This document shows, piece by piece, positions 25,000-58,342 of a stretch of 64,000 nucleotides of DNA. Source of the DNA: Methylomarinum vadi (lineage in GTDB: Bacteria > Pseudomonadota > Gammaproteobacteria > Methylococcales > Methylomonadaceae); assembly GCF_000733935.1 (NCBI RefSeq), contig NZ_JPON01000001.1:1-64000 (forward strand). The letters are read 5' to 3'. The translations under genes and the position numbers were made by a program. The notes below the pieces were generated by a model. That model was not told the DNA's origin. It made no database searches and worked only from the letters and a program-made list of their open reading frames with translations. Position 1 is the stretch's first letter. Every line of letters starts with the position of its first letter.

Positions 25000-25043
25000 A
25001 TCAGTTGAGTAAATCAAACTGAAACCAATTCAATAGGATGCCC

Positions 25044-26339
25044 ATGACAACCGTACAGATTACCAAACCTCTATCTTCCAGGACAGTGGAAGTGATGAAA
25101 CCGGGAGATAAAATTAAGGCCGATACGGGAGAGAACATCGGGTTGCGTGTGAGGTGTGGGGCCACTGGGGTGAAAACGTTTTTCTATCGCTATACCAGTC
25201 CAGTCACCTCAAAGCTCGTTCAGGTGAAAATCGGGAGCTTCCCGGAAACATCCCTGGCCGAAGCGAGGCTGAAACTTCAGGAACTAAAGCAAATCCGCCG
25301 CCAGGGGCGTTGCCCGAGAACCGAGGCAAAGGAGCAGCAAAAACAGGAAAAGGAACAGGAAAGGGCGAGGGTGGAGCCGGTTGAGAAGTTGTTTACCGTA
25401 AAGGACATGGTCGAACTCTATCTGACCCAATATATAGAAGACCGGAAATCCCCAAGCGGAAAGATCATTGCCGGTGCGCGGAAGCCGAAGGGTCAGTCAG
25501 AGACGCGCAGAACCCTCTATGGCGATGTGATTCCCAAGTTAGGGGAGATGCCAGCAAATTCTGTCACGCGGAAGGCCGTGGTGGATATGATCATGGCTAT
25601 CGTGCAACGTGGGGCAAATGTTCAAGCAGGAAATGTACTGAGAGAGCTTTCCGCCGCCTACGAGTTTGCGATTGGTCTGGGCTATTTTTCAGACGAGTTT
25701 GCAAACCCGGCAATTCTCGCCAAAGCAAGCCTCAGACAGGCCAAGGTGAAGCTCACCCATCAACGAGGAAAAAGAGTCCTCTCTGATGCCGAGTTGGCGA
25801 CATTGCTGAAATGGTTGCCTGGCTCCGATTACACCGCAACACAGAAGAATGTTCTTCGGTTTACCCTCTGGACAGGGTGTCGTACTGGGGAGGTCTGCAA
25901 TGCGGCCTGGAAGGACATCGATTTGAAGAAACGGACATTCCACATAAGGGAGAGCAAGACGGAGGTCGAGCGCTATGTGCAATTGCCCCGCCAAGCGGTG
26001 GAGTTCTTGAAAACACTTCGCCTGACCACTGGAGACTACCCGTTCCCATCCCAGAAAACGCGGCTGCCTATCCAGCAAAAGCAGCTAACCGAGCAGGCCT
26101 GGCGAATGAGAGTAAACAACAAGATGGTAGATCTTCCTGCCTGGACACCTCATGATCTGCGCAGAAGCGTCAGGACCGGCTTGTCACGCCTGCAATGCAC
26201 CAACGAAGTGGCCGAAGCGGTATTGGGGCATTCACGTAAGGGGATTGAAGGAACCTACGATTTGCACCGGTACGAGGCGGAGTGTAGGCAGTGGCTACAG
26301 AAATGGGCGGATCATCTGGACGCGCTTATTCGTGACTGA
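25044..26339 (+). CDS. P4-type tyrosine integrase of the ICE
   Basis: The protein is about 431 residues. The N-terminal arm-binding DUF4102-like domain covers 1-95 (GLRVRCGATGVKTFFYRY, VQVKIGSFPETSLAEARLK), followed by a charged linker, a core-binding domain (about 115-215) and a catalytic domain. Catalytic residues visible are Arg in WTGCRTGEV, His and Arg in TPHDLRRSVRTGL, LGH, and the nucleophile Tyr in IEGTYDLHRY. ATG 25044 is preferred to 25038 for spacing from AGGA. It would integrate and excise the element; the target is intergenic next to mutS. Confidence 0.92.
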   Translation: MTTVQITKPLSSRTVEVMKPGDKIKADTGENIGLRVRCGATGVKTFFYRYTSPVTSKLVQVKIGSFPETSLAEARLKLQELKQIRRQGRCPRTEAKEQQKQEKEQERARVEPVEKLFTVKDMVELYLTQYIEDRKSPSGKIIAGARKPKGQSETRRTLYGDVIPKLGEMPANSVTRKAVVDMIMAIVQRGANVQAGNVLRELSAAYEFAIGLGYFSDEFANPAILAKASLRQAKVKLTHQRGKRVLSDAELATLLKWLPGSDYTATQKNVLRFTLWTGCRTGEVCNAAWKDIDLKKRTFHIRESKTEVERYVQLPRQAVEFLKTLRLTTGDYPFPSQKTRLPIQQKQLTEQAWRMRVNNKMVDLPAWTPHDLRRSVRTGLSRLQCTNEVAEAVLGHSRKGIEGTYDLHRYEAECRQWLQKWADHLDALIRD

Positions 26340-35793: not shown

Positions 35794-36450
35794 ATGAAAT
35801 ATGTTATTCAATACACCTTGCCCTATGAGCACCGTGTCATGGTCGGCATCGAGGCCGACAATTCGAACGAAGCGGTCAGGAAGGCCGAGACTCTGTTCGA
35901 CCAAGGCGACATCTGGCAGGACACCGAAAAGGTGCCGTTATTGCTCGATGACTATGAAGAGAAGGGCGATAGCTCGTTGCTGTTCACGGTCGAACAGACG
36001 TTGCGCGATGATGAACCGTGGCCAACACCGGACGCAAGTGTGGTAACGCTTCGTCGCAGGGATGCGGCCTTCCAGGCGGCGAGGTTGCTGGTCGAGGCCT
36101 ACCGGCGTGGTGAGGCCCGAGGCGGCAGCATCGACTGGAGTGATCTTGATGATGCTTATCAGGCGGCGCTTCGGGGAACCGGGTCGAGTTCGGATGGAAT
36201 CAACCCCAGTCCGGCCTGCGAAAGGCTGGTTGTCGTTATGGAAGGCGGCATCGTGCAGGCAGTGATTGCCAATCAGCCAGATACAGCACCGGATATTGCC
36301 GTCGTCGATTACGATACAGACGGCTATGAGCCCAACGAGCTGCGTCCTATTACGCAATCGGATGGTAGCCAGTCGCTTGCGCTTGTCATTGAGCATTTTG
36401 TCGAGCCGGCTGGTATCAATCTGGATGAAGTATTCCAGGAATCCGAATAG
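35794..36450 (+). CDS. ICE protein of unknown function
   Basis: The protein has 218 residues, is acidic and has no membrane segment. The start MKYVIQYTLPYEHRVMVGIEADNS-like region and the repeated ALFDQGDIWQDTE pattern suggest a small alpha-beta domain; the middle and C-terminal parts (about 95-218) look like a second domain. A good ribosome site (AAGGAG, 35781-35786) sets the start. It is the last gene before a terminator and a long non-coding region. I do not recognise the family. Confidence 0.7.
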   Translation: MKYVIQYTLPYEHRVMVGIEADNSNEAVRKAETLFDQGDIWQDTEKVPLLLDDYEEKGDSSLLFTVEQTLRDDEPWPTPDASVVTLRRRDAAFQAARLLVEAYRRGEARGGSIDWSDLDDAYQAALRGTGSSSDGINPSPACERLVVVMEGGIVQAVIANQPDTAPDIAVVDYDTDGYEPNELRPITQSDGSQSLALVIEHFVEPAGINLDEVFQESE

Positions 36451-36470
36451 TCACCCCCATCCCCACCAAC

Positions 36471-36496
36471 GCCCCGCTTTATGCGGGGCTCCTTTC
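36471..36496 (+). terminator. Intrinsic terminator
   Basis: GCCCCGC and GCGGGGC form a 7-bp stem with loop TTTAT, followed by TCCTTTCT. It closes the gene group at 33.9-36.5 kb. Confidence 0.7.
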
Positions 36497-37264
36497 TCCG
36501 CTCCATTCCATCACGTAGACCGACCCGACGGACGTACGAGTGAGTCAGCTACTGGCAGACTACGTCCAGTACCAACGCTTTATGGCTGTCCACTGAGTCC
36601 ACATGCCTTGCCCGCCACGGCAACGCGAGCCTCTAACTCGCGTGCCAAGGGCGGGGCCGCACTCAGCGGCGCCTGTGGGCCCCAGTGGGCAGGTAGAAAT
36701 GCTCCGAAGGATTGCACCAGCCTATTAGTAGCAGGCCGCGTGACAGGTGGATGCCTGGCACACGGCGTGCCTGAACCGAAGGCGCCCTCGTCACTGGCAA
36801 GCGAAGCGGGGTAGTGACGAGGGCGGCATTCCCGGAAACGGCGCGGGTTTTCGGCAGGATTATTCAGTGCAGGGCCAGTGATGAAGGCCGATACTGCCGC
36901 CCTCGATCGATTTTAACCGTGGCTACTGCGGATACAGTAGCAACAGAGCGCGCCCGAACCCTTTGATGCGCTGCGGCGAAAGCCGTGGGTTCATTCTCCA
37001 ATCCGAGCCGACCACGGGATCGGTTCTTTCTCGCAGGCACCAGCCTGACTCGTCGAGCCGAGACGCCCACCCCTGGTGGTGCCGTCGATGCTCATTCTTC
37101 ATTAACTGCGGAAGTGTTCCGCCTATCTGAAAGGAGGTGATGTGTAACCACACTTAAATCGCGCCTATGACGGCGCACGTTGGTCCACGCCAGACCATTC
37201 CCTCCGGGGAGAACCGGCGTTGCCTAGACCAGGCAGCTTTAGGTCGCAATGGGCGTAGTGTCCC
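36497..37264. other. Structured non-coding region (candidate ncRNA or oriT)
   Basis: I see no credible gene in this stretch of nearly 770 bases. It holds many stems: GGCA(A)CGCGAG with CTCGCGTGCC near 36619-36644; GGCAC/GTGCC near 36757-36772; a perfect 13-bp stem CGCCCTCGTCACT with AGTGACGAGGGCG (36783-36795 and 36813-36825); and GCTACTG/CAGTAGC at 36922-36941. The region lies between a terminator and the second tyrosine recombinase. It could be a structured RNA, an origin of transfer or a recombination site. Confidence 0.55.
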
Positions 37265-38212
37265 ATGACCGTACCGCGTGCGCGGGACCGAATGGCTATG
37301 GCCACCGGTTGGGTCAGAAACACTTACCGATATGCGAGAACACTTTTGAGAGATCTGAACTACCAACTCAAGCAGATTTGCCGTCGAAACCGGGACGGCA
37401 GTTTTACAACCCAGCGAGACCGGGAGCGGCTGCTGACGCAGATCGCCGACCAGCTCCATGATCTGGGTTACCGTCATATGAGCGCACAGTCGCTCAAGCC
37501 CAAGCACATCGAGGCTTTGGTCAAAAACTGGCAAGAAAAAGAGCTGTCGGCCGGGGCGATGAAGAACCGGCTGGCAGTCATTCGCTGGTGGGCCCAGAAG
37601 GTCAATCGTCAGAACGTCGTTGCACGATCGAACGACCACTATGGTGTTCCTAACCGGCAGTTTGTGACCAACGAATCCAAGGCCCGTAGTGTGGGGGCGG
37701 AAGAACTTGGCAAGATTCGAGATGCCCGAGTTCGGATGAGCCTGGAACTACAGCAGGCCTTTGGCTTGCGCCGAGAAGAAGCGATCAAGTTCATACCGGA
37801 CTACGCAGATCGCCGCGACCATATCGTCCTCAAGGAAAGCTGGACCAAGGGCGGCAAGGCGCGAACCATCCCGATACGGACTGAGGCCCAACGTACCGTT
37901 CTCGATCGTGCGCGACAGCTGGCCGGTAAAGGTTCTTTGATTCCCAGCGCAAAGAACTATCGACAGCAATTGCGATTGTACGAAGCCGAGACCGCCAGGG
38001 CAGGCTTATCCAGGATGCATGGTCTTCGCCATGCCTATGCCCAGAACCGTTATGAGGAACTGACCGGATGGTGTTCACCCGCGGCGGGCGGTCCTGCAGT
38101 CAAAACGCTCACGCCGGAACAAAAACGGATTGACCAGCAAGCCCGCCTGACGATCAGTCTCGAGCTTGGGCACGAGAGACCACAGATTGTGGCTGTGTAT
38201 TGCGGGACGTGA
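37265..38212 (+). CDS. Second tyrosine recombinase (phage integrase N-terminal type)
   Basis: A 315-residue tyrosine recombinase unlike the element integrase. The SAM-like N-terminal domain covers about 30-125. The catalytic set is visible: Arg in FGLRREEAIKF, Lys in WTKGGKARTIPI, His-Leu-x-His-like HGLRHAYAQNR, and LGHERPQIVAVYCGT with His and the Tyr nucleophile. Such genes are common in ICEs and plasmids next to unknown sites; this one follows a structured non-coding region. The start may be the Met at 37292 or 37298. Confidence 0.85.
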   Translation: MTVPRARDRMAMATGWVRNTYRYARTLLRDLNYQLKQICRRNRDGSFTTQRDRERLLTQIADQLHDLGYRHMSAQSLKPKHIEALVKNWQEKELSAGAMKNRLAVIRWWAQKVNRQNVVARSNDHYGVPNRQFVTNESKARSVGAEELGKIRDARVRMSLELQQAFGLRREEAIKFIPDYADRRDHIVLKESWTKGGKARTIPIRTEAQRTVLDRARQLAGKGSLIPSAKNYRQQLRLYEAETARAGLSRMHGLRHAYAQNRYEELTGWCSPAAGGPAVKTLTPEQKRIDQQARLTISLELGHERPQIVAVYCGT

Positions 38213-40484: not shown

Positions 40485-41392
40485 ATGACAACATCATTCG
40501 AATCCCATTTCAAGCAAAACTATCAAAGCCATCTGAAACACCTCAAACTTAAAGGGTTGCAGCCCAAGACGATCGAGGCCTATGCCCGTGCGATTCGACG
40601 TATCGGCCAGTATTTCAACGAAGACATCAATGCGTTGACCGAACAGCAACTGACCGATTATTTCACCGATTTGCTGGAGTCGCATTCTTGGAGTGCGGTC
40701 AAGTTGGACCTGTACGGTCTCAAGTTTTATTACACCCATGTACTGCGCAAGCCTTGGGTCGCGCCGCAGTTGGTCAAGCCGCCGAAGGCGCAACGTTTGC
40801 CGGATATCGTCACTGTCGACGAGGCGCGGTGTATCTTCCAGTCCACGCGTATTCTCAGTTACCGGGTGTTCTTTTTCACGCTCTACAGTCTAGGTTTGCG
40901 CCTCGGCGAGGGATTGCGTCTTGAGGTTGGGGATATCGATGCCGGTCGCCAACGCGTGCATATCCGAGATGCCAAGGGCAATAAGGATAGACTGGTGCCG
41001 TTGCCGGCTGCCACCCTGGATTTGCTACGCCGCTTCTGGCAAGTTCACCGGCATCCGGTCATGTTGTTTCCCAATCGCCATGGCGGTTTGAAGGGCGCGC
41101 AGCGCGCGCAGAGCCCTTTGGATCGCGGTGGCGTGCAAAAGGCTCTGCGCCAAGTCGCGCAAGACTGCGGTTTAAAAAAAAGATTACCCCGCACTGTCTG
41201 CGGCATAGCTATGCCACACATTTGATTGAAGCGGGCGTCGATCTACTGGAAGTGCAGAAAATCCTCGGTCACCACAGTATCCTCACCACTGCCCGCTATA
41301 CTCACCTGACCGACGGCACGAATCAAAATACCGGCCAGTTGATTAATGCCTTAATGAATGGCTTCGACATCGACTGGGGGGCGGTCAAATGA
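40485..41392 (+). pseudogene. IS91-associated tyrosine recombinase (XerC/D-like), frameshifted
   Basis: The N-terminal 230 residues are SAM-like domain plus the start of the catalytic domain (SLGLRLGEGLRLEVGDID with the first Arg, [18 protein letters not shown] with the Lys). The frame breaks at an A8 run (41174-41181). One A more gives [20 protein letters not shown], then [12 protein letters not shown] and ARYTHL, i.e. the HxxR, H and Tyr nucleophile. The restored gene ends at TGA 41390-41392, overlapping the transposase ATG at 41389. Either a sequencing error, a mutation or programmed slippage. Confidence 0.82.
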
Positions 41393-42486
41393 TCTTGCTT
41401 TCCGCCATCATCCAAACCTTCGAAGCCGAGTTTCTGGTCGCTTACCAGGGTCGCTTGTCACCCAGTCAGCGTCAGGCGCTGGCCGCGATGAAACACTGCC
41501 GCACGTCGCAAGGCCCTGTGATGTTGGCGCAATGCGATGATTGCGATCGGCAACGCTTGGTGCCGCATTCCTGCGGCCATCGCAGCTGCCCGCATTGCCA
41601 GTCGCACGAATCGCAACAATGGCTGGAAAGGCAGTTGCAGAAGCAGGTGCCGGCCGAATATTTTTTGCTGACGTTTACTTTGCCCAAAGAACTCAGGCCG
41701 TTGGCCTGGCAACAGCAACGTACGTTGTATGATCTGCTGATCCGCTGTAGTTGGGATACCGTCAACACCTTCACCCGCAACGATCAACAGCTTCAGGGCA
41801 ATGCCGGTGCTATTGCTGTGTTGCATACCCATTCCCGCCGATTGGATTACCATCCGCATGTACACTTGGTGATGCCGGCGGCCGCCATCGATCCTGATAA
41901 ACGACTGTGGCGCACCAAACAGGGTAAAAAGGGCCGGAAAGGCTATTTGTTCAATCACAAGGCAGTGGCCAAAGTGTTTCGGGCCAAATTGCTTGAAGCG
42001 ATCTCGCAGGCCGGTTTGACATTGCCTGACTACTATCCGCAACAATGGGTCGTTGACGTCAAGTCGGTCGGACGCGGCGATAAAGCCTTGGTTTATCTGG
42101 GACGTTATCTCTATAAGGGCGTTATCCAGGAAAAGGACATTATTGCCTGCCGAGATGGCCAAGTAACCTTCCGTTACCAGGACAGCAAAACCAAAAAGTG
42201 GCAGACTCGAACACTACCCGGCGTGAAGTTTCTGTGGCTGATGCTCCGCCATGTTCTGCCCAAAGGCTTTAGGCGGACTCGCAACTTCGGCTTTTTGCAC
42301 CCCAACAGCAAACGGCTGATTCGTCTGCTGCAAGTCTTGCTCGGCGTCAATCCCAATCGTGCTATCGCTTGGCTCAGGCCCCGCCCGAAACTCCAATGCC
42401 CATGTTGTGGTGGAACCCTGCAGATTATCAAAACGCGCATTCTCGGTTCTTCGGCTGTCATGGCATTGAATTCGACCAAAGCGTAG
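41389..42486 (+). CDS. IS91-family transposase
   Basis: The protein has 365 residues. The N-terminal zinc-binding part reads [22 protein letters not shown]. The HUH endonuclease motif is [15 protein letters not shown], and the tyrosines lie in [11 protein letters not shown]. The C-terminus has a further zinc ribbon (LQCPCCGG). It cuts and rejoins single-stranded DNA for rolling-circle transposition. Intact, so the element may be active or mobilise its neighbours. Confidence 0.92.
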
Positions 42487-43600: not shown

Positions 43601-44131
43601 ATGGGTCGATTCAATCTTTATTGCCGCAAGGTCTTGGTCATGAGTTGCTTGCTCGTACCCGCCATGGCTCAGGCTGATCTGACCGTGATCCACGACACTG
43701 GCAATACACAACCCATCGCGCCTTTTCTGGAGGTTTTTCAAACTCAAGATGGTTTACCACAGCAAAGTCAGGTTCCAACAAGACCCCAGCTCGGCGCTGC
43801 TGACCCTAAAGCCTGGTTGCCGATTCAATCACCCGGCCTGACACCGGGGCCGGTGCAGGCCCGTGCGCATGACCGGCCGTTCACGCGGCCATTTTTCTTG
43901 ATCGGGTCAGACAGCCACTCCCGACAGTGGCTGCAGACACACCGCGATCGGCTCAAGGAGATCGGTGCGGTTGGGATGCTGGTGCAGGCCGAGACGATGG
44001 ATGATTTGCGAACGATTGCCAGATTGGCTGACGGCCTATCGATCCTACCAGCCTCGGGCAGCGACATCGCGAAGGCACTGAGCGTTTCGCATTATCCGGT
44101 ACTGATCTCGGCGTACGGCATCGAGCAGTGA
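43601..44131 (+). CDS. TIGR03765 (PFL_4695) family ICE protein
   Basis: The protein has 176 residues with a signal peptide ending near AMAQADL. Family traits are LTVIHDTGNTQPIAPFL, RPFFLIGSDSHSRQWL and a C-terminal LPASGSDIAKALSVSHYPVLIS. It is a periplasmic part of the transfer system, of unknown detail. The stop overlaps the GTG start of traD. Confidence 0.88.
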   Translation: MGRFNLYCRKVLVMSCLLVPAMAQADLTVIHDTGNTQPIAPFLEVFQTQDGLPQQSQVPTRPQLGAADPKAWLPIQSPGLTPGPVQARAHDRPFTRPFFLIGSDSHSRQWLQTHRDRLKEIGAVGMLVQAETMDDLRTIARLADGLSILPASGSDIAKALSVSHYPVLISAYGIEQ

Positions 44132-46227
44132 GCGCGCATCCCATCGAGGCCCTGCTGCGGCCCCCGGTCGAGCTGTGGTCGACATTGGTGGCCTTTGCGA
44201 CGGCAGGGATAGCCATTCTGGCTCCCTGGGCGCTGATGATGCCGCCGGGTGTTGCCTATGGCGCCGGCGCCGTACTCGGACTGATCGGTTTGATCCGGGG
44301 TCGACAAGCCTGGCGGGTGCTGCGTTACCAGCGCAACATGCGCCGGCTGCCCATCTATAAGGTGCGATCCCGCAAGATCCCCCTCAGCCGCCGCAAGCTC
44401 TTTTTAGGACGGGGCTTTCGCTGGACCCAGAAACACACTCAGCGATTGCGCGATACCATCCGGCCAGAGGTCCAGCGTTACGTCCAGCCGGGTAGACTGT
44501 ATCAATGGGCGCGCCGCAAGGAGGTAGCCTGGGAATCGGTCCCTATCTTAAGTTTGTTGGCGCGGCTGTTTCGGGTCCGGGCCTGGTGGAACCCGCTGTC
44601 GCCGCTGCCGGCCGTCGGTGGCAAACCGGCCCTACACGCTGTCGAGCCTGACGAGCAGGATGTGTGGATGGACATCGGCGAGCGGGTGGGGCATACCCTG
44701 GTGTTGGGGACCACTCGCGTCGGTAAGACCCGGCTCGCCGAGATCCTTATCACCCAGGACATCCGCCGCGGTGACGTGGTGATCGTCTTCGATCCCAAGG
44801 GGGATGCGGGTTTGTTGCGGCGTGTGTATGCCGAGGCCAAACGGGCCGGACGGACCAAAGATTTCTATATGTTCCATCTGGGATTTCCCCAGGTTTCGGC
44901 TCGCTACAATGCCATCGGCAACTTCTCGCGCATCACCGAGGTTGCTACCCGCATCGCCAACCAGTTGCCCAGTGAAGGAAATTCGGCGGCATTTAAGGAG
45001 TTCGCCTGGCGATTCGTTAACATCATTGCCCGTGCACTGGTGGCGCTAAACCGCCGTCCGGACTATCAGCAGGTCCGACGCTACATCAACGATATTGAAC
45101 CTCTGTTCACGGAGTATGCCGAGGCGCATCTGGAGACACACGGCGCGGAAGACTGGAAGGAACAGGTCGAGGAACTGTCGAGCAAGATCTCGGAACGAAA
45201 CCTGCCGGCAGCTCTAAGGGGGCGCAGTAAAGAAGCTATTGCGCTGATGCGACATCTGCAGACCCAGGACCTCTACGATCCAGTCCTCGATGGGCTGGTG
45301 TCTGCCTTCAAGTACGACAAGACCTACTTCGACAAGATCGTCAGCTCCGTCGGTCCGCTGATGGAGAAGCTGACCACGGGCAATATCGCCGAACTGATCT
45401 CGCCGGATTATCTGGATAAGAACGATACGCGTCCGATCTTCGAATGGATGGAAGTCATCCGACGCAAGGGGATCGTCTATGTCGGGCTGGACGCCCTGAC
45501 TGATACCACAGTGGCCAGTGCGGTGGGCAATTCCATGTTCGCTGATCTGGTGTCGGTCGCCGGACACATTTACAAGCATGGCGTGGACGGAGAATCCATC
45601 GATACGCCACCGACAATTTCCATGCACGCCGATGAGTTCAACGAACTGATCGGTGACGAGTTCGTCCCATTACTGAACAAGGCCGGTGGCGCCGGCTTTC
45701 AGGTCACGGCCTACACCCAGACCTGGTCGGATGTCGAAGCGCGCATCGGCAATCGTGCAAAAGCAGGGCAGGTAGCCGGTAACTTCAACACGATGATTAT
45801 GTTAAGGGTGAAAGAGCTGGCTACAGCCGAGATGCTCACCGACCAGCTACCCAAGGTTGAGGTGTTCACCCTGATGAGTGTCTCGGGTGTCAATGATTCC
45901 TCGGAGCCGGGTTCCGGGATCGATTTCAGCTCCCGCAACGAGGATCGAATTAGTGTTTCAGAAGTCCCGTTGCTGACGCCGGCCGAGTTGATAACCCTAC
46001 CCAAGGGACAGGCCTTTGCCCTCCTGGAAGGTGGCCAACTCTGGAAGATTCGCATGCCGTTGCCCGCAACGGACTCGGATATGCCTGAAACGCTCACCGA
46101 GATAACCAATGAGATGGAGCGCACCTACATCACCAACGATCACTGGTACCGCGTGCAGGAACCGTGGTGGGGAGCCGCGCCGGACGTCAGCGAGTCCGAG
46201 GTAGAACCGGAGGCCTCCGATGGCTGA
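44128..46227 (+). CDS. traD: Conjugative coupling ATPase TraD (SXT/TOL subfamily)
   Basis: The protein has 699 residues. Two N-terminal membrane helices (about 15-60) are followed by the hexameric ATPase: Walker A LGTTRVGKTRLAE (about 192-204), Walker B-like PTISMHADEFNEL (about 493-505) and FQVTAYTQTWSDVEAR. It links the relaxosome to the secretion channel. The start is GTG 44128, overlapping the previous stop by four bases. All motifs are intact even though other parts of the machine are lost. Confidence 0.95.
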   Translation: MSAHPIEALLRPPVELWSTLVAFATAGIAILAPWALMMPPGVAYGAGAVLGLIGLIRGRQAWRVLRYQRNMRRLPIYKVRSRKIPLSRRKLFLGRGFRWTQKHTQRLRDTIRPEVQRYVQPGRLYQWARRKEVAWESVPILSLLARLFRVRAWWNPLSPLPAVGGKPALHAVEPDEQDVWMDIGERVGHTLVLGTTRVGKTRLAEILITQDIRRGDVVIVFDPKGDAGLLRRVYAEAKRAGRTKDFYMFHLGFPQVSARYNAIGNFSRITEVATRIANQLPSEGNSAAFKEFAWRFVNIIARALVALNRRPDYQQVRRYINDIEPLFTEYAEAHLETHGAEDWKEQVEELSSKISERNLPAALRGRSKEAIALMRHLQTQDLYDPVLDGLVSAFKYDKTYFDKIVSSVGPLMEKLTTGNIAELISPDYLDKNDTRPIFEWMEVIRRKGIVYVGLDALTDTTVASAVGNSMFADLVSVAGHIYKHGVDGESIDTPPTISMHADEFNELIGDEFVPLLNKAGGAGFQVTAYTQTWSDVEARIGNRAKAGQVAGNFNTMIMLRVKELATAEMLTDQLPKVEVFTLMSVSGVNDSSEPGSGIDFSSRNEDRISVSEVPLLTPAELITLPKGQAFALLEGGQLWKIRMPLPATDSDMPETLTEITNEMERTYITNDHWYRVQEPWWGAAPDVSESEVEPEASDG

Positions 46228-46954
46228 GGCCGTAGCAGATCCTCGTCGCCGTGTGGTTCAGCAAGGACTGTTTTCGAAGACCTTATCGGCAGTCGCGAAG
46301 GTCATCCTGTGGTTATTGTTTTCGCTGTTGTTCTCGATCATCGTGGAGTGGGCAGGCATGGTGCTTTGGTGGCCGGATGAAGGGGTCGATCACAGCCGTA
46401 CCATGCTGGTCACGGAGATCAGCTATCTCGACAATGATTTTCGTCGCAGCGTTGTGACCTCCGATCCGGCACGATTCGCCAAACGGTTCGCCGATAATTC
46501 CTACCACTACCTTTTCGAGGTGACGCGGTTTGTGGATTTCATCCAATGGGTGTCACTGCCTCCGCGGAAGTATGAGCAGGGCGTCAGGGCGACGCTGCAT
46601 AAGGTTTATAAACCCCTGGTAGAGTACGTCCTGGCCATGATGCAGGTGACCCAGGTGTTCTCAGTGCGCCTTGCCATTTTGACCCTGGCGATGCCGATAT
46701 TTTTACTGTTTAGCCTGGTCGCGCTCGTCGATGGATTGGTACAACGTGATCTGCGTCGATGGGGTGGAGGTCGAGAGAGTTCCTTTGTCTATCACTATGC
46801 GAAGAAGGCGGCACTACCTTTGGTTGTCCTGACCTGGGTGACCTATCTCGCCTTGCCGTTCAGTCTGCATCCGACCCTCGTCATCTTGCCGTTTGCAACC
46901 TTGTTCGCGCTGACGGTGGCGGTCACAGCGAGTACCTTCAAGAAATATCTGTGA
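46220..46954 (+). CDS. TIGR03747 (PFL_4697) family ICE membrane protein
   Basis: The protein has 244 residues with helices at about 20-45, 140-160, 195-215 and 220-240. Family marks are LLFSLLFSIIVEWAGMVLWWPDEG, RDLRRWGGGRESSFVYHYAKK. It overlaps traD by eight bases and is its usual partner in these elements. After it, the backbone is interrupted by a mer operon on the other strand. Confidence 0.9.
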   Translation: MAEAVADPRRRVVQQGLFSKTLSAVAKVILWLLFSLLFSIIVEWAGMVLWWPDEGVDHSRTMLVTEISYLDNDFRRSVVTSDPARFAKRFADNSYHYLFEVTRFVDFIQWVSLPPRKYEQGVRATLHKVYKPLVEYVLAMMQVTQVFSVRLAILTLAMPIFLLFSLVALVDGLVQRDLRRWGGGRESSFVYHYAKKAALPLVVLTWVTYLALPFSLHPTLVILPFATLFALTVAVTASTFKKYL

Positions 46955-47034
46955 GGGATGAGAGTGGTGTTTAGGGTGAACTGTCAGAGGGTCGTATTTG
47001 ATCGAATATCATTCTTAAGCATGGATACGTTGTA

Positions 47035-47466
47035 TCACCGACGGTCTCTAGTCAGTGTGGCAATGATGGCGCAGCGCTCTTGACCCGATACGTTTTTCTT
47101 GCAGGCTTTTATCAACTTGTTCAATTCATGTTGCATGGCGCTCAGGTCGTCTATGCGTTGTTGAATAATGTCCTGTTTGTGTTCTGCGATGGTACGCGCT
47201 TCGTTGCAATCCCGGTCATTCAGGGATAGAAGGTCGGTGATCTCATCAAGGGAAAAGCCAAGTTCCTGGGCGCGTTTGATGAATCGAATACGCTCTACCG
47301 TTGAGGTTGGGTAACGACGATAACCCTGTGCCGGTTTCACCGGCTCAGAGATCAGTTCGATGCGTTGATAGTAGCGGATGGTTTCGACATTGACGCCAGC
47401 AGCCTTCGCGAGCTGGCCGATGGTCAGTCCCGAGTCAGTCTGGGCGGTTGCTCTGTTTACGCTCAA
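47035..47466 (-). CDS. merR: Mercuric resistance regulator MerR
   Basis: The protein has 143 residues. The winged HTH is TIGQLAKAAGVNVETIRYYQR, followed by the coupling helix. The three Hg(II)-binding cysteines are present: NDRDCNEA, ACKKN and GQERC. It represses and, with mercury, activates the mer promoter by untwisting its 19-bp spacer. It lies downstream of merA on the same strand, 96 bases away, not divergent from merT as in Tn501. Confidence 0.95.
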   Translation of the reverse strand: MSVNRATAQTDSGLTIGQLAKAAGVNVETIRYYQRIELISEPVKPAQGYRRYPTSTVERIRFIKRAQELGFSLDEITDLLSLNDRDCNEARTIAEHKQDIIQQRIDDLSAMQHELNKLIKACKKNVSGQERCAIIATLTRDRR

Positions 47467-47562
47467 GATGTCATTCTCTCATTAGGATCGTCGCGTTTAG
47501 AAAACAGGGTGATGTCTTCATCCTATTCTGGATTGAGGATTTTGTGAATCCACGAAGACGCA

Positions 47563-49200
<1,638 letters not shown>

Positions 49201-49224
49201 CTACGATCCGTTGGTGGAACCTGG

Positions 49225-49548
49225 TTACTGTTGCTTTAGGGAGGAGGGATAACCCGCCTCGAAGGTGGCATTAGTGAGCGTGTCGATGTCGGTCTTGGCC
49301 GGCTCGAAAGTGACTTTTGCCCAACCCACGCCGTCACCTTCGTACTTGGCTTCGGCCTTGACCACGCCCGGCACCTTCTCCAGGGCCTTACGCACGGTGA
49401 TCGGGCACATGTTGCAGGTCATGTTCTCCACGTCGAGGGTGATGGTCTTCGTCTGCGCCTGTTCGGCGGCTGAAGCCGTGGCGGTGGACAGCGCCAGGGT
49501 GAAACCGGAAAGGCCTAGCAACGCAGTGAGTAAGAGGGTTCGAATCAT
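49225..49548 (-). CDS. merP: Periplasmic mercury-binding protein MerP
   Basis: The protein has 107 residues with a signal peptide (about 1-28, ending ASAAEQ). The metal site is ENMTCNMCPITVRKAL of an HMA fold. It captures Hg(II) in the periplasm and hands it to MerT. The length is slightly above the usual 91, owing to a longer leader region. Confidence 0.94.
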   Translation of the reverse strand: MIRTLLLTALLGLSGFTLALSTATASAAEQAQTKTITLDVENMTCNMCPITVRKALEKVPGVVKAEAKYEGDGVGWAKVTFEPAKTDIDTLTNATFEAGYPSSLKQQ

Positions 49549-49582
49549 GGATGCGTCTCCTAATAAATAAGTGGAAAATCAA

Positions 49583-49939
49583 TCAGCCCAACAAGGCCGG
49601 TCCGTACCAGGGGAAGGCGACGAGCGCGGCCAGGATCACCGTCACCACCCAGAAAATAATGCGCTGGTTGCGACGTGTGATCGGGTTGGCGCAAGGCTTA
49701 CCGGCCTCGCAAGCCTCGGGCACGAGATATAGTTTTCGGAATGCCAACCCCAGGAAAAGCAGTGTCACGCCGATGAATATGGGCCGGTACGGTTCCAGCG
49801 CGCTGAGGTTGCCGATCCAGGCGCCGCCGATACCGAGCAACAGCAGGACGAAAGGGCCGACACAGCACAGAGACGCTGCAATGGCCGCCAACGCCGCTAG
49901 GATCAGGGAGCGGTTCTTGCTCAACGTGTGTTCCGCCAT
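49583..49939 (-). CDS. merT: Mercuric ion transporter MerT
   Basis: The protein has 118 residues from the Met before AEHTLSKN (an upstream Met at 49954 adds five). The first membrane helix holds the cysteine pair SLCCVGP; the loop has EACEAGKPC, the second pair; three helices in all. It imports Hg(II) for reduction. The mer promoter lies directly upstream. Confidence 0.94.
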   Translation of the reverse strand: MAEHTLSKNRSLILAALAAIAASLCCVGPFVLLLLGIGGAWIGNLSALEPYRPIFIGVTLLFLGLAFRKLYLVPEACEAGKPCANPITRRNQRIIFWVVTVILAALVAFPWYGPALLG

Positions 49940-49974
49940 GGGATTACCCCTCAATTATTTAACCTTGACCAAAA

Positions 49975-50005
49975 GTATAAACACCGTACCTAAGTACGGA
50001 GTCAA
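49975..50005 (-). promoter_or_regulatory. mer promoter/operator
   Basis: On the minus strand: -35 TTGACT (50000-50005), 19-bp spacer, -10 TTATAC (49975-49980). The spacer holds the MerR operator CCGTAC-TTAG-GTACGG (49984-49999), a perfect dyad. The long 19-bp spacing is the hallmark of MerR-activated promoters. It drives merTPA and, by read-through, merR. Confidence 0.9.
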
Positions 50006-50106
50006 GGGCTGATTTTGCTTGCATTCGAAGCCCGGGGCTCAACGGTTCACACAGGAGTAATGACACAGAAAACCCCGCCGCCTACGGAATTGATTTTCTA
50101 TATCTA

Positions 50107-50156
50107 GTCCTCCCCGGATCCCCCACCATGCGCGTCATGCGCAACACGGGGAGGAC
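50107..50156 (+). promoter_or_regulatory. Hairpin covering the ribosome site of the RAQPRD gene
   Basis: GTCCTCCCCG (50107-50116) pairs perfectly with CGGGGAGGAC (50147-50156) over a 30-base loop that holds a small stem (TGCGC/GCGCA). GGGGAGGA in the right arm is the ribosome site for ATG 50161. Closed, the stem would block translation. Confidence 0.65.
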
Positions 50157-50160
50157 ATCC

Positions 50161-50463
50161 ATGCAAATTACCAAACTGCTGGTCTCAGGACTGTTGGCGG
50201 CTGTATTGCCGGTTCAGTTCGCCATTGCTGACGCAGATGGCGAACGGGCAGCACTTGCCCGGATCATCCACGAACTTCAGGCCATCGACCCGCTGATCAC
50301 GGAAGCGGCTTCTCAAGCCAATCCTGATGCCCGCGTTCGTTTTCAGTATGAGTGGCTGCGCCAGGATCTTGATCGGATTCGACTCGGGATCCAGGAACAC
50401 ATCGATGCACCACGTTCGGAACCCCGGACTTTCCCGCCGCTGCGTGGCGATTACCGTCGATGA
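50161..50463 (+). CDS. RAQPRD family (TIGR01690) ICE protein
   Basis: The protein has 100 residues with a signal peptide (about 1-22, VLPVQFAIA). The family core is the helix pair ERAALARIIHELQAIDPLI and FQYEWLRQDLDRIRLGI, and the proline-rich PRTFPPLRGDYRR tail. It is periplasmic, of unknown exact role. It starts the second part of the transfer operon. Confidence 0.88.
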   Translation: MQITKLLVSGLLAAVLPVQFAIADADGERAALARIIHELQAIDPLITEAASQANPDARVRFQYEWLRQDLDRIRLGIQEHIDAPRSEPRTFPPLRGDYRR

Positions 50464-50472
50464 TATCGGGTC

Positions 50473-50703
50473 ATGACGGCAGCACAGAACACGGCATTTC
50501 AAGCAGGCTCCGGTTTTACACCGGCCACGTTGCTGACCGGCATTGCATCGGTCGTGCTGGTGCTGGCCTTCGTCTGGGTTATTTGGGTCTCGCTGGGCAC
50601 CTTCCGTGCCTGGCAGAACGGGCAGGTCGTTTTGTTCGATGTGGTCTGGTCGGCACTGCGCGCCAGCATCGTGCTCATGGTGTTGGGTTTTTATCTGCGG
50701 TAG
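50473..50703 (+). CDS. TIGR03758 (PFL_4701, DUF3262) family ICE membrane protein
   Basis: The protein has 76 residues with two membrane helices (about 18-40 and 55-74), motif WVSLGTFRAWQNGQVVLFDVVWS. It is a small inner-membrane protein of the secretion apparatus, probably pilin-like or TraA/TrbC-like in role. It follows the RAQPRD gene by nine bases. Confidence 0.88.
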   Translation: MTAAQNTAFQAGSGFTPATLLTGIASVVLVLAFVWVIWVSLGTFRAWQNGQVVLFDVVWSALRASIVLMVLGFYLR

Positions 50704-50730
50704 CGGCCATTGGCCATTGCCGCAGGGGTT

Positions 50731-50750
50731 CGGGGAGTTCCCCGTATTTT
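50731..50750 (+). terminator. Attenuator-like hairpin before the TIGR03745 gene
   Basis: CGGGG and CCCCG form a stem with a 4-base loop, followed by TATTTTT. A second stem, AACAGGGG/CCCCGTT, follows at about 50752-50770 and ends shortly before the ribosome site. The pair may act as an attenuator or an RNA-processing site to adjust levels of this pilin-like protein. Confidence 0.5.
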
Positions 50751-50787
50751 TAACAGGGGGCAACCCCGTTACCTCGGAGAGAAAGTA

Positions 50788-51003
50788 ATGATGAAGAAAG
50801 CAGTAAAAAAGGTGGTAACCGCAGCTGGGTTGCTCGCAGTTACGGCAGGCCAGCCAGTATTGGCAGCGTTGCCGACCCCGGTGGCACCCAGTACCGCACC
50901 CGCAGCCGGTGACTGGATTGGGCTCATTTCGGGTTACATCAAGGATGGTGGTCTGGTCCTGGGTCTAGCGATCGCTGTGCTGGGCTTCCTGTGGATTGCC
51001 TAT
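50788..51003 (+). pseudogene. TIGR03745 (PFL_4702) family ICE protein, truncated
   Basis: The first 72 residues remain: signal peptide (VVTAAGLLAVTAGQPVLA), then DWIGLISGYIKDGGLVLGLAIAVLGFLWIAY. The reading then runs into the left end of an IS1380-type element, giving a short foreign tail up to TAG/TGA near 51048. Full-length members have about 120 residues with a second helix. It is probably the transfer pilus subunit-like protein. Confidence 0.82.
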
Positions 51004-52585
51004 CCCGAATATTTCATGATAGAGGCGGGCAAGTTTGTTGATATTTGATAAAATTCAGTTACTTAGATTGAATTTAACCAACAACTTGCCCATGACAAAT
51101 TGTACTCCAGCTCAAATAGAATTTCCTCCCTTAAAACGCCGTAAAATAGACGCCCAATTCAGTGGTGGAGCGATCACCAGTGATGGCGGTGTGCTGTTGT
51201 TACGAGCGGTTGACCAGCAGTTAGGGTTAACCGAACGGATAGCGGCGCAGATTCCTGACGCCAGAGCCCCTGACCGCGTGCAACACTCTGTGATCAACCT
51301 GCTCCGTCAACGGGTTTATGGCTTGGCGTGTGGGTATGAGGATTTGAATGATCATGACACGCTCAGAAATGATATCGCCTTTCAGACGGCGGTGGAAAAG
51401 GATCAGACATTGGGCAGCCGATCCACCTTGTGCCGGTTTGAGCAGCAGGCGGATCGCGCCTTGATGTGGCGAGTTCATGAGGAGTTGCTGGCACAGTTTA
51501 TCGCTTCGTATGAGACACCGCCGAAATCGTTGATCCTGGATTTCGACGCCACCGACGATCCGGTTCATGGCGAACAGGACGGACGTTTTTTTCATGGCTA
51601 CTATCGGCACTATTGTTTCCTGCCGTTGTATGTCTTTTGCGGCCATCACTGCTTGGTCAGTTATCTACGTCCCAGCAATATTGATGGCGCCAAGCACAGC
51701 TGGGCGATTCTGGCTTTGCTGGTTCGGCGCTTGCGTCAGGCTTGGCCGGACGTTGACATCACGTTTCGCGGCGATGGCGGTTTTTGTCGCCATAAGATGC
51801 TGAGTTGGTGCGAGCGGCATCGCGTTCACTATATTGTCGGGTTGGCCAAAAATAAACGCTTAACGCGCTTAAGCCAACCCTGGATTGAACAAGCCCGGCA
51901 ACAGTTCCAAAGCGAACAGCAGAAACAGCGTCTCTTTACCGATTTCCACTATAAAGCCGGCACCTGGAAACGCCGACGCCGTGTCATTCTTAAGGCCGAA
52001 CACATGAGCCAAGGGAGTAATCCCCGCTATGTCGTAACCAATCTGGGCGGCGATGTACAAACACTCTATGAAACCGTTTACTGTGCGCGAGGCGACATGG
52101 AAAACCGGATTAAAGAGCAACAATTGGATCTGTTTGCCGACCGCACCAGTTGCAGCCTGTGGTGGCCGAATCAGTTTCGTTTGCTGTTATCCACCTTGGC
52201 CTATACCCTGATCCAGGCGATTCGCCGAATCGCCCTCAACAACACCGAACTAGCAACAGCCACTTGCGCCACCATTCGCCTGAAATTGTTTAAAATCGGT
52301 GCCGTCATCATTCGTAACACCCGTCGTATTCGACTGCTGTTCAGCAGTCAGTATCCGTTTCAATCCTTGTTTAAATCCGTTTGTCAGCGCCTGTGCCCTG
52401 ATTAGTACAAACAAAGTGCTGTGCCCGGCACGCTGATAAACAATGGGGTAAGGGGAAGTTGCGCCTGAAAAACGGAAATCAATGCTTAATTCCCTTTTTG
52501 ACCGCTCAATTTCTCCTTACGATCGCATGTTTTAAAACAAACGAGGGTTTCGATAGGGTTTCAAGGGACTGATGAAATATCCGGG
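51004..52585 (+). mobile_element. IS1380-type insertion sequence at a deletion junction
   Basis: Terminal repeats are CCCGAATATTTCAT (51004-51017) and ATGAAATATCCGGG (52572-52585), matching at 13 of 14 positions as inverted repeats. The length is 1582 bp, with one transposase gene. The flanks are TAT on the left and CTAG on the right with no clear 4-bp duplication. The genes on the two sides are different truncated backbone genes, so the element marks a deletion. Confidence 0.85.
51092..52405 (+). CDS. IS1380-family transposase
   Basis: The protein has 437 residues from the Met before TNCTPAQIEF. Family marks are the N-terminal SGGAITSDGGVLLLRAVD, LDFDATDDPVHGEQDG with catalytic Asp, FRGDGGFCRHKML with the second Asp, and CARGDMENRIKEQQLDLFADRTSC with the Glu. 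No break, so probably functional. Confidence 0.92.
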   Translation: MTNCTPAQIEFPPLKRRKIDAQFSGGAITSDGGVLLLRAVDQQLGLTERIAAQIPDARAPDRVQHSVINLLRQRVYGLACGYEDLNDHDTLRNDIAFQTAVEKDQTLGSRSTLCRFEQQADRALMWRVHEELLAQFIASYETPPKSLILDFDATDDPVHGEQDGRFFHGYYRHYCFLPLYVFCGHHCLVSYLRPSNIDGAKHSWAILALLVRRLRQAWPDVDITFRGDGGFCRHKMLSWCERHRVHYIVGLAKNKRLTRLSQPWIEQARQQFQSEQQKQRLFTDFHYKAGTWKRRRRVILKAEHMSQGSNPRYVVTNLGGDVQTLYETVYCARGDMENRIKEQQLDLFADRTSCSLWWPNQFRLLLSTLAYTLIQAIRRIALNNTELATATCATIRLKLFKIGAVIIRNTRRIRLLFSSQYPFQSLFKSVCQRLCPD

Positions 52586-52840
52586 CTAGACCTCTCTATT
52601 GACATGCCAGCCGATCCTGCGCAGTCGAAGCGGATCGCGCTGGATCGCATCCAGCACATGGATGATCAGTCAAAAACAAAAATGCAAATGGCGGCGCAAG
52701 GGTTGGCGAAGGCGATGCAGTATGGCGTGGATCGCTATCCAGCTATTGTGTTCGATGGCCAGGCAGTCGTATACGGCGTAACCGATGTGCAGAGCGCACT
52801 TGCGCATTACCGCGTATGGCGGCGGGAAGGTAAGCGATGA
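52586..52840 (+). pseudogene. TIGR03757 (PFL_4709) family ICE protein, 5'-truncated
   Basis: The open frame continues from the IS end through LDLSIDMPADPAQSKRIAL to the stop, with YPAIVFDGQAVVYGVTDVQ typical of the thioredoxin-like C-terminus of TIGR03757. The N-terminal part, with signal peptide and first strand, is gone. The internal ATG at 52604 is not the true start. The end overlaps the next gene (ATGA). Confidence 0.82.
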
Positions 52841-57400: not shown

Positions 57401-58342
57401 CTATCTAAACCGCTCAATAAACAGGCTCCAGTAATACTCCGCAGCTCCACTATGTGTCAGTTCTTTGTCCCCGTCTTTTCTGAAATGGGCCATTCCCATC
57501 GGCGCAAGGAACAGGGTGTAACCGTTATCGTTTACCGACATGGATTCATTGTAACTGTTGCCATGCCCTATGCCACTGTATGAGAACAGGAGGCCGTCCA
57601 TCATGGAGGATCCGTTGCCCTGCCAAATTCCACATCGACTCCGTTCTTCGCCGTTCATATAGGCAACCGCTTCAAAATGGTTGGCATCGATGCGCTTGAA
57701 GCTGGTCTCCACTCCGGGATTCCTCGCTTCCAACTCTTTGAGAGAATTCTCGAAATACCCAGCAATATACTCGAAGCCTTCATCCAGAAACCGGTGTCGA
57801 TCTCTGTCTGAAAATTGCTTCTTGATACCTAAGTTGCTGGATCGGTCAGGGTGGTCGCCTACAACAGATGTTACATCGTGTTTTCCTGCCGCTAAAGCTG
57901 CTGGCTGGAGATGTTCCGTAGCTGTCCGGACTGCGCGCGCGACTTCAAGGAATCCCCGATCCAGGCTCGCATGCTCGATCACTGGTTTACCGTCTGTAGG
58001 GGTAGCGTTGAGTTTTCCGAGTGGGGTCTTCTGCCAGTCACACGGGCGGAGGATGACAGGGATGACTCTGGCTGAGCCTTCAGCATGACGTTCCAGCGCC
58101 CGTTTCATTTCAATATCGTAGCAGTAGTCAGAATGCAGGAAATCTGAACTCACGAGCAGCAGCACGATGTCCGCTGCCTCCAGTTGATTGCTGATCTCTC
58201 GGTCGAATTCGTCACCTGGACCGATCCGGCGGTCTTGCCAGATATCAATCACACCATCCCGTCGAAGAGCTGCGAGGTGTTTTTCCAGCTCTTTCCACAG
58301 ATCTTCATCTTGATGTGAGTATGAAAGAAAAAGTCTAATCAT
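57401..58342 (-). CDS. TIR-domain protein with unknown C-terminal domain
   Basis: The protein has 313 residues. The TIR-type domain (1-140) reads MIRLFLSYSHQDEDLWKEL, DIWQDRRIGPGDEF, ADIVLLLVSSDFLHSDYC, with a candidate catalytic Glu in CYDIEMKRAL. The linker (about 140-170) leads to a C-terminal domain (about 170-313), DRDRHRFLDEGFEYIAGYF and GAAEYYWSLFIERFR. Bacterial TIR domains often cleave NAD, sometimes as phage-defence effectors; the second domain may sense or position it. No partner gene of a known TIR system (Thoeris ThsA, Argonaute) is adjacent. Confidence 0.8.
   Translation of the reverse strand: MIRLFLSYSHQDEDLWKELEKHLAALRRDGVIDIWQDRRIGPGDEFDREISNQLEAADIVLLLVSSDFLHSDYCYDIEMKRALERHAEGSARVIPVILRPCDWQKTPLGKLNATPTDGKPVIEHASLDRGFLEVARAVRTATEHLQPAALAAGKHDVTSVVGDHPDRSSNLGIKKQFSDRDRHRFLDEGFEYIAGYFENSLKELEARNPGVETSFKRIDANHFEAVAYMNGEERSRCGIWQGNGSSMMDGLLFSYSGIGHGNSYNESMSVNDNGYTLFLAPMGMAHFRKDGDKELTHSGAAEYYWSLFIERFR

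What the first reader, a model, noticed from the sequence alone, without database searches (positions are those of the whole stretch)
36497..37264. A 770-base structured non-coding region before the second recombinase
The region lies between a terminator and a tyrosine recombinase gene, holds no good gene, and has several long perfect stems including a 13-bp one at 36783-36825. It is a strong candidate for a large non-coding RNA, an oriT or a recombination target of the adjacent recombinase, and could be an undescribed element.
Basis: partly seen in the sequence, partly recalled or inferred. Interest (0 to 1): 0.72.

Follow-up and report, generated by a model that had tools for sequence, protein, structure and literature searches.

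The report
RNA-and-recombinase DNA-transfer module
A folded stretch of about 760 letters in front of a recombinase gene belongs to a widespread, apparently undescribed family that travels with that recombinase in mobile DNA and probably helps to start DNA transfer between bacteria.

Summary
The conserved unit is 36584-37345 (not 36497-37264). It precedes, on the same strand, a PF12834/PF12835 tyrosine recombinase (likely start TTG 37346). Of 80 recombinase relatives found without using the region, 79 match it upstream. Covariation is strong: in the 3' core 23 of 32 pairs change on both sides. No Rfam family matches. Best reading: a mobilization module, an oriT-like folded region and RNA plus a tyrosine-recombinase-type relaxase, working like the sgm-sRNA/MpsA module of SGI1. 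Of 36 TraD coupling-protein places, 12 have this recombinase within 15 kb, 9 a MOBH relaxase, none both, 15 neither. Some plasmids pair the recombinase with a coupling protein. Eight of 28 copies lack an intact adjacent recombinase; five of these lie behind an integrase and/or HTH_36 gene, as in satellite elements. Transcript, nicking and RNA dependence are untested, and tests of RNA against folded DNA are mixed.

The parts
36584..37345 (+). conserved structured region (RNA and/or folded DNA), 762 nt
36611..36655 (+). 5' stem-loop with imperfect arms 36611-36629 / 36637-36655
   Evidence: conserved
36783..36825 (+). central hairpin with perfect 13-bp arms, inner GTCACT...AGTGAC; candidate recombinase-binding (oriT-like) inverted repeat
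37130..37141 (+). AAAGGAGGTGAT, complementary to the 3' end of 16S rRNA (recalled); in most but not all relatives; role unknown
37218..37328 (+). 3' core domain, covariance model R1, 101 bits
37222..37245 (+). hairpin GCCT/AGGC whose loop GACC (37227-37230) pairs with GGTC (37242-37245): pseudoknot
   Evidence: 80.4% of its cells paired; 2 of 4 pairs with two-sided changes
37266..37316 (+). closing helix TGACC 37266-37270 / GGTCA 37312-37316 around two hairpins
   Evidence: 84.3% of cells paired; 4 of 5 pairs with two-sided changes
37318..37328 (+). terminal motif AAACACTTACC just before the recombinase
37346..38212 (+). tyrosine recombinase, PF12834 + PF12835, 288 aa from TTG; R142, K168, H225, R228, H276, Y285 invariant in 17 sequences
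   Evidence: which residues are catalytic is recalled
44128..46227 (+). coupling protein TraD (TIGR03754) of the element
25038..26339 (+). separate integrase of the element (PF00589)

Best explanation
The region is the cis and RNA half of a mobilization module. A transcript starting near 36584 folds into a large RNA that ends at the start of a tyrosine-recombinase gene. The recombinase acts as an atypical relaxase in place of a classical one: it probably binds the GTCACT/AGTGAC inverted repeat (the oriT-like part) and nicks DNA with its tyrosine. The RNA is needed to assemble that complex or to hand it to the coupling protein, as the sgm-sRNA is thought to do for SGI1. SHOWN by computation: conservation, covariation, association with the recombinase, linkage to the coupling protein, absence of the two classical relaxase families searched in most carriers, and copies in elements without an intact adjacent recombinase. 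INFERRED: transcription, relaxase activity, nicking place, need for the RNA as RNA.
For: 79 of 80 recombinase loci carry the region. Covariation. TraD places: 12 with the recombinase within 15 kb, 9 with MOBH TraI, 0 with both, 15 with neither; 8 of the 12 have the R1 core beside the recombinase (compare), the other 4 are distant recombinases. Nine of ten carrier genomes lack PF07514 and ten of ten lack PF03432. Ten large ORFs of the G334 element: no relaxase. Recombinase with a coupling-protein gene on plasmids (virD4 nearby). Eight copies without an intact adjacent recombinase, five of them behind an integrase and/or HTH_36 gene. Precedent: SGI1 (PMC9299015, PMC6414798).
Against: No transcript, nicking or transfer data. 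Strand tests are mixed: central hairpin neutral, single-sequence energies do not favour the sense strand. 15 of 36 TraD places have neither partner within 15 kb, and in PFGI-1-class elements TraI can lie further away (26.8 kb in G223). G000 itself has two PF07514 proteins, 500 kb away. Relaxase families other than PF07514 and PF03432 were not searched in whole genomes. The window's own element seems to lack VirB4/TraC. Two other carrier plasmids also hold a MOBQ relaxase and one a MobA/MobL protein.
Confidence: 0.6

Rival explanations
1. The fold matters as single-stranded or extruded DNA, not as RNA: a folded oriT or an attC-like recombination site that the recombinase recognises.
For: Central hairpin has no G-U excess (8 to 6); strict helix choice in the 3' part gives 30 G-U to 28 A-C; sense strand is not more stable (9 of 30); the inner GTCACT/AGTGAC is conserved as sequence; best fold match is an integron integrase.
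Against: G-U exceeds A-C in pairs common to both strands' folds (64:26, 111:70, 142:99), most in the 5' part (23:2); covarying structure over about 760 nt is large for a DNA site.
Confidence: 0.17
2. A structured leader that controls translation or transcription of the recombinase.
For: Constant position before the gene; AAAGGAGGTGAT inside it and no ribosome site seen right before the start (by eye).
Against: Eight of 28 copies have no intact recombinase beside them; the size and the pseudoknotted 3' core are unusual for a leader.
Confidence: 0.12
3. Site-specific recombination function (dimer resolution or excision) with a large target site, unrelated to conjugative nicking.
For: Intact tyrosine-recombinase residues and fold; many carriers are small plasmids.
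Against: Mutual exclusion with MOBH TraI beside TraD; the element has its own integrase; a DNA target alone would not need covarying structure over about 760 nt.
Confidence: 0.07
4. An RNA-guided recombinase in the manner of IS110 bridge RNAs.
For: Region upstream of and in line with a recombinase; copies without the recombinase exist.
Against: No sign that region plus recombinase moves as its own unit: in 12 places it lies 2.5-10.7 kb from TraD, and elements have separate integrases. Target-matching loops were not looked for.
Confidence: 0.04

Closest known systems
SGI1 mobilization module: oriT, sgm-sRNA, MpsA, MpsB (PMC9299015, PMC6414798)
   Same: Large RNA (650-700 nt primary transcript) running towards the start of a tyrosine-recombinase-like relaxase gene; inverted-repeat-rich oriT; works with a conjugative element's coupling protein (papers; direction inferred from the text).
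   Different: MpsA and MpsB are two proteins, here one protein carries both domains (tandem pairs exist in distant relatives). SGI1 borrows the transfer system of IncC plasmids; here the module sits in the conjugative element itself. Sequence homology to SGI1 could not be tested.
MobK (pIGRK) and TcpM (pCW3) recombinase-like relaxases (PMC8152469)
   Same: Tyrosine-recombinase chemistry used for oriT nicking; oriT upstream of the gene (MobK).
   Different: The paper says both lack the core-binding domain; here PF12834 is present. No RNA is mentioned in the parts read.
MOBH relaxase TraI (PF07514) of PFGI-1/SXT-type elements
   Same: Beside the same coupling protein family TIGR03754 in related elements.
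   Different: Absent from nine of ten carrier genomes and not near TraD where the module is.
IS110 bridge RNA; integron attC sites (recalled)
   Same: A recombinase with a folded nucleic-acid partner.
   Different: IS110 uses another recombinase type and attC sites are short cassette-borne hairpins (recalled).

Membership tests
Any Rfam 15 RNA family | covariance-model match at gathering score | tested here: not met
   whole window, 0 matches; E <= 5: one chance-level match, E 4.2
SGI1-type mobilization module | tyrosine-recombinase-family protein with intact active-site residues next to the RNA/oriT | tested here: met
SGI1-type mobilization module | structured region of about 700 nt directly upstream, same strand | tested here: met
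SGI1-type mobilization module | the RNA is transcribed and needed in trans for transfer | not testable with these tools
   no RNA or mating data
SGI1-type mobilization module | separate MpsB-like second protein | tested here: not met
   single PF12834+PF12835 protein in the window; a second PF12834-type ORF precedes the recombinase in L019, L022, L023
SGI1-type mobilization module | sequence homology to MpsA / sgm-sRNA / oriT of SGI1 | not tested
   SGI1 record not held
oriT | inverted repeats beside the relaxase gene, also carried by mobilizable satellites without the relaxase | tested here: met
   (five of eight copies without the recombinase)
oriT | strand-specific nick | not testable with these tools
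   none
MOBH / MOBP-type relaxase in the element | PF07514 or PF03432 protein in the element | tested here: not met
   the weak TrwC match (below its cut-off) is in an IS91-type transposase

The most novel reading that the evidence does not exclude
A ribonucleoprotein relaxosome: a tyrosine recombinase that needs its own large structured RNA to nick, load or hand over DNA, serving as the resident transfer-initiation system of a branch of PFGI-1-class conjugative elements and of many small alpha- and gammaproteobacterial plasmids now typed 'non-mobilizable', and parasitised by satellite elements that carry only the RNA/oriT.
Probability: 0.35. Interest if true: 0.92.

Novelty: new variant of a known kind. 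Interest (0 to 1): 0.76.

Why it matters
It would turn one odd case (the sgm-sRNA of SGI1) into a broad class: a large structured family absent from Rfam and tied to a relaxase-like recombinase. Of 209 plasmid records with a relative of this recombinase, 132 are typed non-mobilizable, so plasmid mobility may be under-called. It makes the question 'why would conjugative mobilization need an RNA?' testable in cultured marine bacteria.

Tried and rejected
Known RNA families: none. A hidden coding gene: ORFs are short, and indels and two-sided changes do not fit coding. Chance structure: rejected by covariation and by column shuffles. DNA search in phages and E. coli genomes (762-nt region) and in plasmids (36300-37500): no match. 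A G-U/A-C count over all covarying columns was uninformative because background pairs dominate (end). Alignment A2 was replaced by an L-INS-i alignment and then by the shorter A3. Rows: the 3' alignment had 79 sequences, 52 after removing near-identical ones; L102, L103, L105 and L129 were then left out by eye (48 used), and also L091 and L099 from A3 (46). In one search, seven of ten weak R1 matches (E 0.0003 to 0.33) lie upstream of the plasmid recombinase on its strand, three elsewhere; they count only for position. Protein search of solved structures gave only a designed protein. No control was run for the terminal motif.

Full report
What is there. Window 36584-37345 is a stretch without a convincing gene. 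It lies between a terminator-like hairpin at 36471-36489 and a tyrosine recombinase with domains PF12834 and PF12835. The element around it is a PFGI-1-class integrative conjugative element: integrase at 25038, AcaB-type regulator, ParM-like gene, STY4534, RadC, PilL2, TraD, TIGR03747/03755/03756 and TraG_N.

Boundaries. Six relatives (L003, L004, L005, L007, L008, L009) align from window base 36579-36585 to the recombinase start, with unrelated sequence before that; L006 and L011 match only the later part by blastn. Homology of the protein to relatives other than the near-identical L003 begins at about residue 25-28 of the ATG-37265 reading in most, so the likely start is TTG 37346. In genome G350, whose element is 92-95% identical in the matching stretches, the 84 bases before the region correspond to about 860 that do not match.

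Association. 79 of these 80 loci match a profile of the region, upstream of the recombinase, at E <= 0.01; the eightieth, L114, has the 3' core at E 2.4e-8. In a more distant set, the 740 nt upstream have z of about -3 or lower in 11 of 18 loci, against 1 of 18 for the recombinase gene. Of the seven exceptions, three (L019, L022, L023) have a second PF12834-type ORF in front, and the stretch before that pair has z -4.0 to -6.3 and a GTCACT hairpin; a fourth, L018, has neither. Five of seven plasmids reach z -3 or lower.

Covariation. On 46 sequences of the 3' core (A3) a stated structure was counted: 87.1% of cells pair (48.5% at best when slid), 23 of 32 pairs have two-sided changes, covariation score 0.339 (0.165 +/- 0.008 in shuffles, 0 of 500 as high; at most 0.110 when slid). 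The structure was drawn on these sequences, which leans towards it. A script of mine with a tree-based null, like R-scape's, finds 7 of 51 structure pairs significant, and the eight strongest of all 26,106 column pairs are those seven plus one pair of the closing helix. That helix occurs as GACC/GGTC, GGTC/GACC, AGCC/GGCT, GATC/GATC, GACT/AGTC and GAGC/GCTC, with 15.7% of its cells unpaired. Over the full length (27 sequences) 11 of 163 pairs are significant, two of them in the central stem, but 4 of the 10 strongest pairs there are not in the structure. Column shuffling drops the consensus energy from -100.8 to -24.5 (3' domain) and from -467 to -240 (full length, 10 sequences).

Deep landmarks. 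A GTCACT..AGTGAC hairpin lies within 1000 nt upstream in 53 of 72 loci that have at least 800 nt there, and in 0 of 213 downstream control windows. Among 30 distant homologs it is present in 10 (7 of 15 plasmids, 3 of 15 chromosomal), with stems of 10-14 bp, including Rhizobiaceae and Xanthobacter plasmids and Vibrio pSIO1; the upstream stretch was short in two of the misses. The terminal motif A(A/C)NACTNA(C/T)C precedes the recombinase in 11 of 15 plasmids and 0 of 15 distant chromosomal loci, and a similar one in 74 of 80 loci.

RNA or DNA. Pairs common to both strands' consensus folds show more G-U than A-C: 64 to 26, 111 to 70 and 142 to 99 in three alignments, strongest in the 5' part (23 to 2) and absent in the central hairpin (8 to 6). 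A stricter, strand-neutral choice of helices gave 30 to 28 in the 3' part and 133 to 80 over the full length. Single-sequence energies favour the sense strand in only 9 of 30 (recombinase genes: 8 of 20). I read this as an RNA with an embedded DNA-level site; it is not proof of RNA.

Function. Coupling protein TIGR03754 occurs at 36 places over cut-off in 369 genomes: 12 with this recombinase within 15 kb, 9 with MOBH TraI, 0 with both, 15 with neither. Eight of the 12 carry the R1 core beside the recombinase (compare); the other four are distant recombinases (G041, G182, G231, G329). Nine of ten carrier genomes have no PF07514 protein; G000 has two, 500 kb away. None of the ten has PF03432. 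Ten large ORFs of the G334 element include no relaxase. Other relaxase families were not searched in whole genomes. On pSIO1 (4.9 kb) the recombinase is annotated with a coupling-protein gene and two small ORFs only. Pleionea, Psychrobacter and Sinorhizobium plasmids also have a coupling-protein gene close by, and a Neorhizobium plasmid has virD4 and a MOBQ relaxase.

Copies without the recombinase. Model R1 finds 28 cores in 13 of 369 genomes. Set, twenty have the recombinase within 400 nt and eight do not. L163 keeps a 26-residue remnant; L165 and L166 look, by eye, like degenerate recombinase starts. Three copies in G247 and one in G091 are compact: model positions of about 366-640 are nearly missing. 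Five of the eight lie behind a phage integrase (L163, L168, L170) and/or an HTH_36 gene (L164, L168, L169) on the same strand, directly or with a short ORF between; L168 has Fic and HsdM genes after it. Only selected ORFs were scanned. This is the layout expected of satellites that borrow a transfer system, and it argues against a mere leader; decayed modules are the plain alternative for L163, L165 and L166.

Protein. The predicted model (mean pLDDT 87.7, pTM 0.61) matches tyrosine recombinases of known structure, best an integron integrase and XerH, with low overall TM-scores of 0.3-0.4.

Known systems. The nearest is SGI1, where a 650-700 nt RNA reaching towards the start of the recombinase-like relaxase gene mpsA is essential in trans (PMC9299015: abstract, section 2.6 and discussion read; PMC6414798: abstract, oriT results and first part of the discussion read). 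MobK and TcpM are further recombinase-like relaxases (PMC8152469: abstract, section 2.1 and discussion read). SGI1 relatives were seen in PMC8409611 (passages and one section) and PMC9035990 (passages). I found no paper on an RNA with PF12834/PF12835 recombinases in searches of an open-access library that lacks most subscription papers; only the top of each listing was seen. One paper suggests that such an integrase may mobilize a resistance gene (PMC9769806, passages).

Verdict. A real, widespread structured element with no Rfam entry; a mobilization module is the best-supported reading (0.6).

Noticed in passing
window 46954-52836: Between TIGR03747 and TIGR03756 lie a mercury reductase gene and an IS1380 transposase; the TraC/VirB4 protein of the related G334 element finds no match in the window, so this copy is probably not self-transmissible.
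   Followed up: partly
window 40485-42486: A Xer/integron-integrase-like recombinase followed by an IS91-type transposase interrupts the element; this part is missing from the G350 relative.
   Followed up: no
L004, L005, L007, L008, L009, L059, L060, upstream of the region: A TTACA(C/G)TGTAA dyad some 65-100 nt before the 5' end in seven loci, absent from the window's copy; possible operator (by eye).
   Followed up: no
L005 3628-3822; L105 1097-1317; L083 1293-1510: Extra partial copies of the region: 5' pieces upstream of the full copy, a doubled 3' core, and an inverted 5' piece.
   Followed up: no
window 33925: A second, shorter GTCACT..AGTGAC hairpin between the ParM-like and STY4534 genes.
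   Followed up: no
L019, L022, L023: Tandem PF12834-type ORF plus recombinase in elements of other genomes, reminiscent of the MpsA/MpsB pair.
   Followed up: partly
window 57401-58342: A protein with weak, below-cut-off matches to TIR-type models (FxsC, Thoeris) near the right part of the element; perhaps a defence gene.
   Followed up: no
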